Both the position numbers and the translations under genes were made by a program. A stretch of 64,000 nucleotides of DNA from Ceratotherium simum simum. Its lineage: Eukaryota; Chordata; Mammalia; Perissodactyla; Rhinocerotidae. The notes beneath the pieces were generated by a model that was not told where the DNA came from, made no database searches, and saw only the letters and a list, made by a program, of their open reading frames with translations. The stretch's first letter is position 1. Each line of letters begins with the position of its first letter. Of the stretch, positions 4,058 through 64,000 are shown piece by piece. Location: contig NW_004454216.1 in NCBI RefSeq assembly GCF_000283155.1, positions 321,231 through 385,230 on the forward strand, in the 5' to 3' direction.

Positions 4058-33712
<29,655 letters not shown>

Positions 33713-35094
33713 AGTTCTGCTTTGTCTCCAGGGGGGAAGACAAGAGTGCTGGTGTTTTGGGGGCCCCGAGGACTTTCCCCCTTGGTACAGTTCACTCCCT
33801 GTGGTGGGGGCACATGTCTACAGAGCAACTAGTAATAAGATGGAAGCCATGGTGTTTGAAATTCCATTTCTGCCTTCTCCGCTGCAGACTAGTGAGGTGG
33901 GTGGTCCTTGAGTCTTTAGAAGCCACATCATGTAGAGACTGTCTGTGATGCTTCCTAAAAGAAAAGAGAGACAAAATGAATTCAGCTAAGCCTAAATCCC
34001 ATCTAGTTATGATGAGTGCAACAGAGGTGGCTCAGAATTTCCATTGAGAGAGGCTGAGGGATAGCAGGTGGGGAAGGCATGGCTTGGAGTCTTCTTTTTA
34101 TAGCATTTCATGAAAGGTACAAAAATTTCAATTGCCTGTATTGGAGAAGGACTGTGTTCAGCTGTAAGGGGCCACATTTTAAAGAGGCCATTGATAAGCT
34201 AAGGCCTCCACTGATGCTGCCACTAGATTTTAATCCATTCATTTTTATGCATGAATAATGCACAGAGTTGGCCTGGTAGTAGCAAGATAATATTAATGAT
34301 ATTTTATTCAGCACATATGTTCTTACAGAAAATACAGAATGAGTCATATTTAGGTTTAAATCTGACTTTAAATCAAACCAAAATGTCAGAAAAGGCCACT
34401 TATTCTTTATTTATTAGCCCCCCTTTTCTGTGCTTCCTCATCATAGATCTCTGGTTCCAGCTTGTAATATGACACTCCATAAACCTTTGAAGAACAGTTC
34501 TTGTAAAGGACGCAGATAAATCAAGGGTCAGATTATACTCTACAAAGCTCAACAGCTGGATCTGGGGAAAAGTCCTTCCGCTTTAGCACCATTATCCTAG
34601 TAGGAACTCTCTGCTCTTTTCACTCTATCTCACCCACCCTGTGGGTCAATTACCAACTATATGTCAGTGTATCTAACTACAGACCCTCTGCTGAGGTTGA
34701 GGCGCAAGCATTGAACTGTCAACTGGACATCTCTACCTGGATGTCCCAGAGGTGCTTCCAACTTGACAGGCTCTAAACTCACCTTCCTCCCAAACTTGTT
34801 TCTCCTTCACTGTTTTCTATCTCAGCAGATGACGAGCCATCCACAAAGACACAAAATAAGGTGTCATCCTTGCCTCCTCCTTCTTCTCATCATTGCCCTT
34901 CATATTCAAACCACCACCAAGTTCTGTAGATTCTACCTCCTAAATCTCTCTGGAATCCATCCACTCCTTCCCATTTACAAGGCCTTCTTAAGTCCACCAG
35001 CATTTCTTACCTGGATTTCTCCAACTATTTCCTAACTGCCTTCCTGCCTTCAGTTTTATCCCTTTGCAGTCCACCTTTGCAAATCTTTGGATGC

Positions 35095-47254: not shown

Positions 47255-47445
47255 CAGTGGCTCTCAAAGTGAGGTCCCTAGACCAGCAGCAGCAGCAGCA
47301 GCAGCAGCACCTGGGAGCTTGTTGGAAATGCAAATTCCTGGGTCCCACCCCTGAATTAGAAAAACTCTGGGGGTGGGGCCCAGCAACCTGGGTTTTAACA
47401 AGCCCTGTGGGTGAATCTGATGTATACTCAAGTTGAAAACCACTG
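47255..47445. mobile_element. MER5A-type hAT MITE containing a (CAG)8 run
   Basis: Inverted ends CAGTGGCTCTCAAAGTG and AGTTGAAAACCACTG, with GGAAATGCAAATTCCTGGG and AAACTCTGGGGGTGGGGCCC between, identify a MER5A-like non-autonomous hAT element. Eight CAG units occupy 47284-47307. Confidence 0.9.
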
Positions 47446-51650: not shown

Positions 51651-52194
51651 GTAGTGAAGCTCCCCACTCCCTTACTGGAATTGAGTAGAACAGCACTTTG
51701 CTATCTCCCTCTGGTTCCAGAATACACTTGTTTAGCTCACCCACAGCATGGCTACTTTCAAACAGCAAGTGTATGATGACGAGACGGGACTGGGGCAGAA
51801 AGCCAGGCAAGCCACCCCACAGCTAGATTAGAGAAATGGTACCCTCTGAGATGCAGTTAACATCCAGTCCACAGGGTGGATGAGACTGGCTGTGTGACAC
51901 ACTCCTACAATAGGATCCTGATCAGGATGTTTTCTGACATCTCTAAGGTGACCACAGGCCGGATGATGATGACACTCAGAAAGCTGCAAAAAGTCTGAAC
52001 CTATGGCACGCAGAGCAAGCAAGGAAGGTCCACCACAGATTCCACAGGGAGAGACGGGTTTCAGGTTTCAAACGTGCAAATCTCCGATCCTTTATGTATC
52101 AATCTGATGGGTCAATGCAACAACTTGGGAGCATGTTTATGAAGAAACCAAGAGAAAGCCCTTTGGCCGAAGAAACCAGGTGGAGGAGACAGAG

Positions 52195-52310
52195 GACTAG
52201 AAGGGGGTCAGACAACCGTGGTTCTAGTCTCGGCTCTGCCACCCCCCCTGGGGACCGGCTGCTGCCCTTCTTGGGCTTTGGTGTCCGCATCTGTAAGATG
52301 TCCGAGTTGG
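52195..52310 (+). repeat. MIR SINE at the edge of the CpG island
   Basis: GTTCTAGTCTCGGCTCTGCC and GTCCGCATCTGTAAGATGTC are a MIR core with retained CpGs. Edges approximate. Confidence 0.65.
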
Positions 52311-52379
52311 GCGGCACGGGTTGGTGGGTCCTGCGAAGTCCCTTTTACGCAGGCAGAGCCTCAGTAGAGGGCTGGGCTT

Positions 52380-52830
52380 AGAAGTGGCCACTCTCTGTCC
52401 CCTCCCCTCCTTCAAGTGAGAGGGTCTCCCTCCTCCCTCCCACCGTCCACTCCCTGGAGGCTCGGCGACCGTCCGTGGCCAGGGGGCGGCGCGGGGAGGG
52501 GACCCCTCGGGAAGCGGGCTCCTTTCCCCGCCGTCAGCAGCCCGCCGGCCGCTCCCGCGCCGCCCTCCGCCTTCCGCCCGCGCGTCCGCGCGCCCGCATC
52601 CGCCGCCCGCCCGCTGTGCTGGAGCGGAAAGATCGCAGATCGATTTCCAGCCCCAGCCCGGCGTGGCGTCAGCAGGGGGGGGGAGGTTGTTTTGACTTGT
52701 AGTGCGTGGAGCTAAAGAAGAGACCCTCTCCGGCCTTGACGCTGCCTTTGCGCTTTCCTGGTCCCCGCGGGCGACTCGTTCCAACGCTGCCCCTGCGCGC
52801 CGCGGCTGGGCTTGGAGGATCCCCTCCCAG
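52380..52830. promoter_or_regulatory. CpG-rich island inside CASR intron 1
   Basis: Very G+C-rich sequence with densely packed CpG, most intense at 52460-52640 (for example CGCCCGCGCGTCCGCGCGCC), in otherwise A/T-rich CpG-poor surroundings. Such islands usually mark promoters or enhancers. I find no TATA box or convincing first exon in either strand. The gene served is unknown: an alternative CASR start, a non-coding transcript, or an orphan island are all possible. It does not resemble the human CASR first exon as I recall it. Confidence 0.75.
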
Positions 52831-52964
52831 GGTCCTAGGCTCCTCGAGGGGTTATTCATAACTTAGGACCAGAGACACACTCTAAGCAGAATGAATTCAC
52901 AGTAATTAGAATCCAATAACGCCCGGGCCAGAAGGCATCTCAGAATATGTTTAGTCTAAATCTC

Positions 52965-53060
52965 CCATTTACAAGTGGGTAAACTGAGGCTCAGAGAGGG
53001 GAAGCGGCTTGCCAAGGTCACATGGCCAGACTTGAGCAGTGCTAGGAGTAGGATGTGAAT
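52965..53060 (-). repeat. MIR SINE
   Basis: AACTGAGGCTCAGAGAGGGG and CTTGCCAAGGTCACATGGCC are the MIR core. Confidence 0.85.
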
Positions 53061-54254
53061 GTTCATTCTCTCACTGTAGAGAGCTTGCTTACGTAAGGAA
53101 TGGAAGGCTTCTTATTTTTAATTTTTAGTGTGCAAACTTTTTATGAAAGAAAGGAAACCACAAAGGAAAGATCCATCCCACTGGAACATTAAACTGTTAT
53201 GTCCAGACGATACAGAATTTTAAATTTAGAAAGGATATTCGAGGTCTTCTGGCTCACTCTCTCATTTCGGTTATCAGCTGCTTAGTGGCAGAGAAGAGCA
53301 TAGACTCCCTCGGCCCGGCCCACTGCCACCAATGTTATTAAATAAACAGAAACTCACCTGAACAGAAATGCAAATAGGTACACTACAGTAGGAGAGAAGG
53401 AAATTTTGCTGGTAGTATGTGTCTTGATTGAGGGTGGGGTTGAGGTGGGAGGGAAAAGTATAGAGGCTGGCAAAAATGTTTAGCACACTTAAAAAATGTC
53501 TATGATTTAAATTTAAGATTATTTACAATAAAATATACACTTAGCATGGACCGGAGTAGGTGGAGGCCCAGGAGGGGGTGGCACAGGGTGGTTCTGGTCC
53601 CCTCTTAGTTTCCCCTCTCAACCTGATAGCCGTGAGCATGGATTCAGTTGAGCCCTTGCTAGGACAAGTAAGCAATGGCCAAACAGCAAATAAGGCAACT
53701 CCGTGTCCAACAAGTAAGAATTGGCAGGCAAAGATGGTACAGTCTCATAATAGAAGACTGTGCAGTCCTTAACAACGTGTAATAAAACTACCTAAAGACA
53801 TGGGATGATACTCATGATATGCTGTTCAAGAAATTAAAAAACAAACGTGCAGCAAGCATGTACCGTGAAACCAATTTGTTTTTAAAATATGAATAGACAT
53901 AGGAAGAAAAGATAGAGCATTATTAACATCCTTGTGAGCTAGACAGGGAAGAGATGACTAGTGCTGGTCCCAGGATGCTGAAACAAACAAACAACGGCAA
54001 CAACAAACTTACCTGAGCTTCAGGGGGATTAAGTGGCTTGTCCAATATTACGTAAGTGATAAGTGGCAAAGTCTCAGCTGGAAACAGATTTCAGATTCTC
54101 AATTCAATGTTTTCCGCTGGACCATTCTAATCCACTCCTTCCTCAGACTGCTGGTTGTCCCTCACAGGGATATACATTTCGGGAAGGACATGTTACTTTG
54201 AAGTAGCCATACTGACATGGCCACAGAGTCATTTAGATGCTCTTAGAAAAACAG

Positions 54255-60524: not shown

Positions 60525-61976
60525 TTTCCTTCACTCAATTCCCTGACAATCTTTTGAGCAACAGAAGTATCATGGAATGAGTGGAAAGCCTTTCAAGTGG
60601 CTTTACTTAAGGGGAGACCATACTCATTTGGCTGTGCATACACCAGTTTGTTGGTTTAAAATAAATCAGTAAGTTATTTTATGCCTCATTCATAGCCCAA
60701 CTGTCCAGTTGTGCCCTTAGTTGACTCCTGGAGGCAGAGGGCTGTAATCATAGTGTGGCCCAGCTTCCTCACATGTGTAGGTAAAGACTCTGTATCCATC
60801 TGTTATTCAAGATGGTTTGGCAGCGGTGTCTGGGACAGCAGCAAAGGCAAGGATAAACCTACTTCCTCCTCTCTTCCACCCTCCCCATTAGCGGGCCAGA
60901 AAACTCTGGTTTATGGCCTTTCGGTGGCACAGATTAGTTTCTTGGTGATGCATTCCACACTCCCGAGGTTAATAAATGACTCTGAAGAAAAGCAAGTCAT
61001 TTATCATGGGCTTTTGTGTGACCCTTAGTCCAGTCAAAGAAAAGATATTGTGCTTTAGGCACTTTCAAACAAGGAATTGGCCTTACTGATCCATTGGCAC
61101 ATGTCCAGTTAGGGGACATGGTCTTTTCTTGGTCACTTTCATTCCAAGAACTCCTTAGCATCTAAGAAAGATTTTATTCAGCTAAATTCTAGCCATTAGT
61201 CTAGACTGTAAAGAGTTCCTATACAGTCCAAGTACCAAGTGAACAACAACCGAGTTTACCTGAATAGTAGTTCACCCTTCCCTGTTGGGCGACAGTGGGG
61301 ACTCTGATGTGTTCGGCATGTGGCATTAGATGATCTTGATGTTCCCAGCCAGCCCTAATAGCTCTCTGAGGTTTATGAACATTTTGAACTAAGAGAGAAC
61401 AGTAAGGTTGTGTCTCCATCCACTTGTCTGAGCCATATAAGTGAGAGATTGGAGAACTAGGCTCTTTTCCAGCTCTGAACCTGCCTATCCACACCCCCCT
61501 TTAAGATATCAGAAAGCTACTGTGGCATATTTTTAGAGAAGTTCTAAAGAAAGCTTTTTTTTTTTTTTTTTAGAAGACAGCACAAATCAAAGGTTTAATG
61601 AGTAAAATGGATATTCTCTATTAAAGAATCTTCAAATGGATACTGCAGGTAGAAACAAGGAAAGCAGAGTCATAAAGTAGAATCAACAAACCTAAAAGAG
61701 CAAATGTCAGAATTTGGCACAGAGATCAGAGGGACAAAGGGATAAGGAAATAGTATACAACCACCACAAAAATGTAGGCACTTCCAAAAGCCACCTTGGA
61801 GTTTTCAAGAAGAGGGGATGACACAAGGTCAAGTGTCGAGGAGCTAAATGTGGGTGGAGAATGCACTGATATAGGTCCAGGACAACTGGCAGTATCTGGT
61901 CAAGAGGAACAACCACATGGAAGGAATGAGAAAGATATCTTCAAGTGGAGGGCTTGCACCTCTTAGAAACCACATA

Positions 61977-62343
61977 ACAACATCCAGAGCTGGCAGGAAC
62001 TGTAGAAGTGATCCTCACTGGTCTCCTATGGGCCACAGATAGACCCATATAGCAGAAGTGACTTACCAAAGGTCAACCAGAGTAACTGCATTCATTTACT
62101 TTATTTTGCATATTTGTCATTAGGACTGCCTTGATTCAGTTTATTGACATATTAAACCATAAATCACTATCCCCGTATTGACTCTATACAATCTGAAAAG
62201 CTTGCCTTGGATTTATATAGTATCTTGCCTCTGGGTAAACTCAAGTAGCTTCATATATATACATTTATAGAAACCACTGAGAATTATATCCTAGGAAGGG
62301 TTTTGATCCCAAATTAGCTATAAACAATGTTTATGCAAGTTGC
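61977..62343 (+). repeat. Left arm of a near-perfect long inverted repeat
   Basis: This 367-bp arm is the reverse complement of 63498-63864. Base-by-base comparison gives a single difference: A at 62049 opposite C at 63792 (T expected). The arm contains degraded repeat-like text and no open frame. The outer boundary is sharp at ACAACATCC and the inner one at CAAGTTGC; sequence diverges immediately outside both. Confidence 0.97.
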
Positions 62344-62495
62344 ATAACAGTTAGGAGCCAGGTTGAGCAAGTCATCCTACATTATCTTTGACCTTTCTTT
62401 GCTATGGTCATCAAAATGGCAGATAAAAAATGAGTGTTGATTTCAGTAATTCAGATAGGTGTTTTTTACACCGGCTTAGCTACTGTACCCAAATA

Positions 62496-62712
62496 CAGTC
62501 TCGTGCCGCATACCGACGTTTTGGTTAACCACAGACCGCATATCGCATATACAACAGTAGTCCCATAAGATTAGTACCATATAGCCTGGGTCTGTAGTAG
62601 GCTATACCATCTAGGTTTGTCTAAGTACACCCTATGATGTTCACACAACGATGAAATTGCTTAACGACGCATTTCTCAGAACATATCCCCATTGTTAAGC
62701 AACACATGACTA
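62496..62712. mobile_element. Small palindromic DNA-transposon fossil (Tigger/mariner-like MITE)
   Basis: The ends CAGTCTCGTGCCGCATACCG and GTTAAGCAACACATGACTA are imperfect inverted repeats (the second reads TAGTCATGTGTTGCTTAAC on the other strand). TA dinucleotides flank both sides (62494-62495, 62713-62714), as for TA-targeting Tc1/mariner/pogo elements. The interior keeps AACGACGCATTTCTCAGAAC. The exact family is not assigned. Confidence 0.85.
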
Positions 62713-62729
62713 TAGTTAAAAAAATTATA

Positions 62730-62751
62730 TATATTGCCTATAGGCAATATA
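62730..62751. repeat. Perfect 22-bp palindrome
   Basis: The sequence is self-complementary around 62740/62741 (core ATTGCCTATAGGCAAT). It sits 16 bp beyond the TA flank of the MITE. Confidence 0.97.
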
Positions 62752-63497
62752 CGAATCACACAGTCAGCAGTGGGTTGTTAACAAGGACTAGGAGGACCAA
62801 GAACCCTCTTGCATTCAGTATTGGCCTAGACTTCATACGTAGTATGGTGTCCAAGTATGTATATTTCAATCTTAGAGAAGGGGACCCAGACAAACTAGTC
62901 TATGCCCAGAGAAGTCAAACAATGAAAGCTTGGAAATGAAGCCATGAGGAGGAAACAAACTGTGAGAACTAACCCTGAGAGTTTGCCTGGAGAAAAGAAC
63001 TCTTAGTTGGACATGATTGGGGTCTTCAGAACGCTAAAAGAGGTCTTAGATTTTTTCTAGGTGGTTATGAAGAGTAGAACTGGACAGACAGGCAGAAATT
63101 CCACGGAGATAGATTTTGGTGGGATGTAAGGAAGAATTTTCTATCAGAACTGTACAACAATGCACTAGGTTTCCAACATAGCATAAGAAAAATGTCCTAT
63201 TATATCAATTATGACTATGCAACAATGGAAATACATGCCTCCCAAAGTGAGGGCGTAAAAGTGTTCAGAAAGAGGCTGGGTGATCAGGTTTGAGGGAAGC
63301 AGAGAAGGTATCTGGCCCTTGGTGAGTGTGGACATGAGATCTGCATGCCCCACTAGAAGAATCTGCAATTCTAAGAACTTAGAATTAAGTTATTAGAACT
63401 TAATAAATCTTGAATTTATATTGCTCCTTTCTTTCTTGGAACTTAAAGTGCTTTTACCTCTAGTCTCACAAGAGTCAGTGAATCACAGAAAAATGAA

Positions 63498-63864
63498 GCA
63501 ACTTGCATAAACATTGTTTATAGCTAATTTGGGATCAAAACCCTTCCTAGGATATAATTCTCAGTGGTTTCTATAAATGTATATATATGAAGCTACTTGA
63601 GTTTACCCAGAGGCAAGATACTATATAAATCCAAGGCAAGCTTTTCAGATTGTATAGAGTCAATACGGGGATAGTGATTTATGGTTTAATATGTCAATAA
63701 ACTGAATCAAGGCAGTCCTAATGACAAATATGCAAAATAAAGTAAATGAATGCAGTTACTCTGGTTGACCTTTGGTAAGTCACTTCTGCTACATGGGTCT
63801 ATCTGTGGCCCATAGGAGACCAGTGAGGATCACTTCTACAGTTCCTGCCAGCTCTGGATGTTGT
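63498..63864 (-). repeat. Right arm of a near-perfect long inverted repeat
   Basis: Reverse complement of 61977-62343, with one difference in 367 bp (63792). The arms and the spacer could fold into a long stem in a nascent CASR transcript, if this is intron 1 as inferred. Confidence 0.97.
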
Positions 63865-64000
63865 ACATTATCAAAGCCAGAGGCAGCTTTAAGACATGAT
63901 GTCCCAGAGAGCCAGCTAGCCCTTGACAGGGAGGTGGCTGGCAGCAGATATGGAAGGGGATGGAGAACTTACGCCCTTCCTATTTTTATCAGTTGCTTAT

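What the first reader, a model, noticed from the sequence alone, without database searches (positions are those of the whole stretch)
61977..63864. Recent or homogenised inverted duplication: 367-bp arms, 366/367 identical, 1154-bp spacer
Seen directly: both arms were compared base by base with one mismatch (62049 versus 63792), and identity stops abruptly at all four edges. Surrounding repeats in this intron are visibly old and diverged, so near-identity stands out. The spacer carries no transposase and the arms are not tRNA-like or LTR-like in full, so this is not a standard mobile element. Likely explanations are a recent template-switch duplication in inverted orientation, or an older one kept identical by gene conversion. 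Such a pair can also flip the spacer by recombination and would form a long double-stranded stem in CASR pre-mRNA, a possible ADAR or circular-RNA substrate. An assembly error must be excluded first.
Basis: partly seen in the sequence, partly recalled or inferred. Interest (0 to 1): 0.8.

Follow-up and report, generated by a model that had tools for sequence, protein, structure and literature searches.

The report
Recent inverted duplication near CASR exons
A 367-base piece of non-coding DNA near the calcium-sensing receptor gene of what is probably a hoofed mammal seems to have been copied backwards about a thousand bases away fairly recently, an ordinary kind of copying accident that still needs checking for assembly error.

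Summary
Arms 61977-62343 and 63498-63864 are inverted copies, 366/367 identical, 1154 bp apart, with no detectable homology beyond the edges. No other pair found by self-BLAST comes near it. Best reading: a recent, single, locally templated inverted duplication (replication template switch / MMBIR, or templated break repair), about 1.5 Myr old (0.04-8.4) at an equid rate if there was no gene conversion. Homogenisation of an older, longer repeat is less likely, since no decayed homology flanks the arms. Which arm is new is unsettled: a 7-bp direct repeat brackets the left arm (106 of 6000 random intervals do as well), but the left inner edge also lies in a perfect 17-bp quasi-palindrome, and a recalled SINE consensus runs weakly past the left outer edge. 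Assembly error and orthologues could not be tested: 13 requests to the window's own genome did not complete. As RNA the arms pair at 367 of 367 positions, but transcription and editing are untested, and the circular-RNA idea has no exon to support it. New member of a known kind; modest interest.

The parts
61977..62343 (+). left arm, 367 bp
63498..63864 (-). right arm, inverted copy, 366/367 identical
62344..63497 (.). 1154-bp spacer; its two halves show no detectable inverted homology to each other
62049..62049 (+). only difference between the arms (A; its partner 63792 is C on the plus strand); a U-G wobble in minus-strand RNA
61973..61979 (+). first copy of direct repeat CATAACA, across the left arm's outer edge
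62343..62349 (+). second copy of CATAACA, across the left arm's inner edge
   Evidence: 106 of 6000 random 367-bp intervals have a bracketing repeat of 7 bp or more
62331..62347 (+). perfect quasi-palindrome TTATGCAAGTTGCATAA (8-bp stems, 1-nt centre) spanning the left inner edge
   Evidence: hairpins with stem 8 or more cover 0.39% (loop up to 3) or 0.92% (loop up to 10) of the window
62496..62712 (+). old Tigger/pogo-like DNA transposon fragment in the spacer with TA on both sides
   Evidence: for position and TA; family name recalled, from no call

Best explanation
A recent, single, locally templated inverted duplication. During replication or break repair a nascent strand switched to the complementary strand about 1.2 kb away, copied 367 nt in reverse, and returned, leaving an exact inverted copy with sharp ends. 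Shown: near-identity, sharp edges, no flanking homology. Inferred: the mechanism (template switching / MMBIR, or templated end joining) and the recency. Not resolved: which arm is the copy. It most likely has no selected function.
For: 366/367 identity with four abrupt edges and flanks at chance. [quoted passage not shown] computed); arms 20 Myr old would show about 13 differences, P(<=1) = 3e-5. If the left arm is the copy, reading the junctions gives 3 bp (ACA) and 1 bp (C) of microhomology and a 7-bp target duplication; that corresponds to switch point 4 preceding point 1, which PMC7954356 says it saw in many great-ape events (passages), whose majority patterns make single inverted repeats. 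PMC2621351 (passages) describes inverted duplications with 2-5 bp junction microhomology among the events that MMBIR is meant to explain.
Against: The copied length (367 nt) exceeds the maximum of 128 nt (median 12) of the great-ape set in PMC7954356. A 1-bp junction is below the 2-12 bp seen at 80% of the tumour junctions in PMC8421209, though 138 of 155 and 135 of 148 fibroblast junctions there are only said to have at least 1 bp. If the right arm is the copy, microhomology cannot be measured, and the quasi-palindrome sits at an end of the template rather than at the initiating switch point where PMC7954356 measured structure. The polarity clues point opposite ways and were found post hoc. 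No orthologue, read or second assembly was seen.
Confidence: 0.7

Rival explanations
1. An older inverted repeat kept identical by gene conversion or repeated template switching between the arms.
For: Template switching can homogenise inverted-repeat arms (start of the abstract of PMC8604942 in the listing). Identity alone cannot tell recency from homogenisation.
Against: No decayed homology beyond the edges, so conversion would have to cover the whole 367 bp to both ends.
Confidence: 0.12
2. Assembly or library artefact: one arm was placed wrongly in inverse orientation.
For: No read evidence could be examined; the window's own genome was never reached.
Against: No N in the window; the arms differ at one base; their flanks are unrelated; a missed-adapter palindrome has no spacer (general knowledge).
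Confidence: 0.15
3. LINE-1-mediated insertion of a reverse-transcribed fragment (class 1 templated sequence insertion) made the left arm.
For: 7-bp direct repeat around the left arm; class 1 TSIPs have a duplication of recipient sequence of at least 5 bp (PMC5110952, passages).
Against: No poly(A) tract at either end of the left arm and no TTTT/A at the site, read by eye; the template is the neighbouring 1.2 kb, not a distant locus. A cryptic poly(A) signal was not tested.
Confidence: 0.03

Closest known systems
Short-range template switch mutations, four-point model (PMC7954356, passages seen)
   Same: Inverted copy of a nearby template; single inverted repeats are the majority pattern; point 4 may precede point 1.
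   Different: 367 nt copied from about 1.2 kb away, against median 12 and maximum 128 nt in that set; direction of the event unknown here.
MMBIR and MMBIR templated insertions (PMC2621351 and PMC8421209, passages seen)
   Same: Templated, inverted, short junction microhomology (1-3 bp here, if the left arm is the copy).
   Different: MMBSearch looks for templates within 100 bp of the insertion; here it is more than 1 kb away.
Templated sequence insertion polymorphisms (PMC5110952, abstract and passages seen)
   Same: A copied piece of genome at a new place; a target duplication of 5 bp or more as in class 1.
   Different: Template is local, not distant; no poly(A), no TTTT/A site.
Recombinogenic long inverted repeats (criteria of Wang and Leung as quoted in PMC4319165, passages seen)
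   Same: Stem >30 bp, identity >85%, spacer <2 kb: all met.
   Different: Identity higher than in the four examples of its figure legend (75-88%); no deletion or inversion known at this site.

Membership tests
Recombinogenic long inverted repeat (criteria quoted in PMC4319165) | stem >30 bp, identity >85%, spacer <2 kb | tested here: met
   367 bp, 99.7%, 1154 bp
Local template-switch / MMBIR inverted duplication | inverted copy of a nearby template with sharp edges | tested here: met
Local template-switch / MMBIR inverted duplication | microhomology at both junctions | tested here: inconclusive
   3 bp and 1 bp, only if the left arm is the copy (read); not measurable otherwise without the empty site
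Local template-switch / MMBIR inverted duplication | empty ancestral site in relatives | not tested
   no vertebrate collection at hand; own genome unanswered in 13 tries
Class 1 TSIP (L1-mediated) | target duplication of 5 bp or more | tested here: met
   left arm 7 bp; right arm 2 bp at best
Class 1 TSIP (L1-mediated) | poly(A) tract and TTTT/A site | tested here: not met
   left-arm edges read by eye
Class 1 TSIP (L1-mediated) | cryptic poly(A) signal 10-30 nt upstream of the tail | not tested
   no tail to measure from
Transposable element with long terminal inverted repeats | target-site duplication around the 1888-bp unit; other copies | tested here: inconclusive
   left flank ends ACATA, right flank begins ACATT, 4 of 5 bases, by eye; no second copy of 61500-64000 in window 1-61499 (best hit 35 bp, E 0.57; nhmmer 0 hits); genome not searched

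The most novel reading that the evidence does not exclude
A very young, perhaps still polymorphic inverted pair whose spacer flips by recombination in the population and whose fully paired 367-bp RNA stem is edited in CASR-expressing tissue: a dated natural experiment on how inverted repeats arise and age in a mammalian intron.
Probability: 0.07. Interest if true: 0.5.

Novelty: new member of a known kind. Interest (0 to 1): 0.27.

Why it matters
A long, recent inverted duplication of sequence that has no second copy elsewhere in the window is a clean, datable record of template switching at a size (hundreds of bases) above that of the short-range great-ape survey I saw. If real and polymorphic it could also be a source of local instability near an important gene. 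There is no evidence of function.

Tried and rejected
Mobile element: no tRNA gene, no Rfam family, no second copy of the region in the rest of the window. A 26-base arm word has 0 exact matches in viral contigs and in genome contigs; both tools warn that records of the window's own genome may be left out, and neither collection is one of vertebrates.

Other junction words: TACATTATC (63864 and 62378) and TAGAAACCAC (61964 and 62268) looked suggestive. 43% of 150 random points have some 9-mer match within 1.3 kb, so the 9-mer was dropped; the 10-mer had no control of its own length and I gave it no weight.

Polarity from old repeats: a recalled MIR consensus did not align convincingly (21 of 200 shuffles as good for 62150-62700; 6 of 200 for the joined empty left site, which scored higher, 214 against 194, in a target of different length). 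A second recalled SINE-like consensus aligns well with either side (0 of 200 shuffles each; score 209 left, 189 right) and gains more from the left flank than from the right (14 against 3, and 16 against 3, for two versions typed); random window flanks reach the left gain in 266 and 167 of 3000 trials and the right gain in 1995 and 2071 of 3000. Weak, and resting on memory.

Literature: 9 paper searches. None was aimed at this locus, so I make no claim that it is unreported. PMC7615360 (passages; template switching and sub-2-kb variants at human meiotic breaks) was seen and offers a possible germline setting, untested here.

Full report
Observation. The two arms, 61977-62343 and 63498-63864, are inverted copies over 367 bp but for one base (62049 A; 63792 C on the plus strand), separated by 1154 bp. 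In a self-BLAST of the window (52 distinct pairs, 40 printed) it stands alone: the next identity is 90.2% over 61 bp; the other printed pairs look to me like fragments of one SINE family (the name equine repetitive element is recalled). Sequence beyond the arms is unrelated on the outer side (136 bp, all that the window holds; 96 of 300 mononucleotide shuffles as good) and on the inner side (200 bp, 212 of 300; 577 bp, 69 of 100). The pair is far beyond chance.

Setting. The window carries CASR on the minus strand (receptor ligand-binding region by Pfam in two further ORFs). The first coding exon lies within the ORF 33524-33817 (start recognised from memory), so the arms are about 28 kb upstream of it. 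I recall that human CASR has a first intron of about 70 kb, which would put the site in intron 1. PMC5020072 (abstract and passages) confirms two alternative first exons and a GC-rich promoter P2, but the passages seen give no distance. A CpG island at about 52.1-53.1 kb leaves open that a promoter lies there and that the arms are upstream of it.

Age. [quoted passage not shown] computation), or 0.62 Myr (0.02-3.45) with a recalled mammalian average. Copies 20 or 55 Myr old would differ at about 13 or 34 sites; an age of 4 Myr is not excluded (P(<=1) = 0.26). This holds only without gene conversion and for a species with an equid-like rate.

Mechanism. Sharp edges, no flanking homology and a local inverted template fit a two-step template switch. 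Polarity is unresolved. For the left arm as the copy: CATAACA brackets it, which 106 of 6000 random 367-bp intervals match or exceed (two arms were tested, the right one reaches 2 bp), and reading the junctions gives microhomologies of 3 and 1 bp. For the right arm as the copy: the left inner edge falls in the perfect quasi-palindrome 62331-62347, of a class covering 0.39-0.92% of the window, and a recalled SINE consensus continues slightly over the left outer edge. The quasi-palindrome clue is qualified: with the right arm as the copy, this edge is an end of the template, not the initiating switch point at which PMC7954356 measured structure; with the left arm as the copy, the quasi-palindrome would have been made by the junction itself. 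Both clues are post hoc and share bases (CATAA).

Literature comparison. [quoted passage not shown] MMBIR (PMC2621351, passages; PMC8421209, passages) covers templated events with a few bases of microhomology; the 1-bp junction here is at the low end. TSIP class 1 (PMC5110952) shares the target duplication but has a poly(A) and an L1 site, which are missing here. The arms meet the recombinogenic inverted-repeat criteria quoted in PMC4319165 (passages). PMC8755829 (abstract) deals with 17-33-nt microinversions flanked by inverted repeats and is only loosely related.

RNA. In the CASR sense direction the single difference is a U-G wobble, so 367 of 367 positions pair (duplex energy -689.1); in the antisense direction 366 pair. 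The predicted minimum-energy fold of the whole 1888-nt sense stretch keeps all 367 pairs. Editing by ADAR is plausible if the region is transcribed (general knowledge); nothing here tests it, and the paper listing was not followed up.

Limits. No vertebrate sequence besides the window could be consulted, and the window's own genome did not answer in 13 tries. Assembly error, copy number in the genome, polarity and polymorphism therefore remain open.

Noticed in passing
52101-53100: CpG island (500-bp bins with GC up to 0.70 and CpG observed/expected up to 0.92), about 18 kb upstream of the first coding exon of CASR; possible promoter.
   Followed up: partly
62496-62712: Old Tigger/pogo-like DNA transposon fragment with TA on both sides, inside the spacer (family recalled).
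   Followed up: partly
62320-62334: A second quasi-palindrome (ATAAACAATGTTTAT) inside the left arm, beside the one at the left inner edge.
   Followed up: no
47284-47309 and 8764-8818: Perfect CAG (8.7 copies) and AAGGT (11 copies) microsatellites.
   Followed up: no
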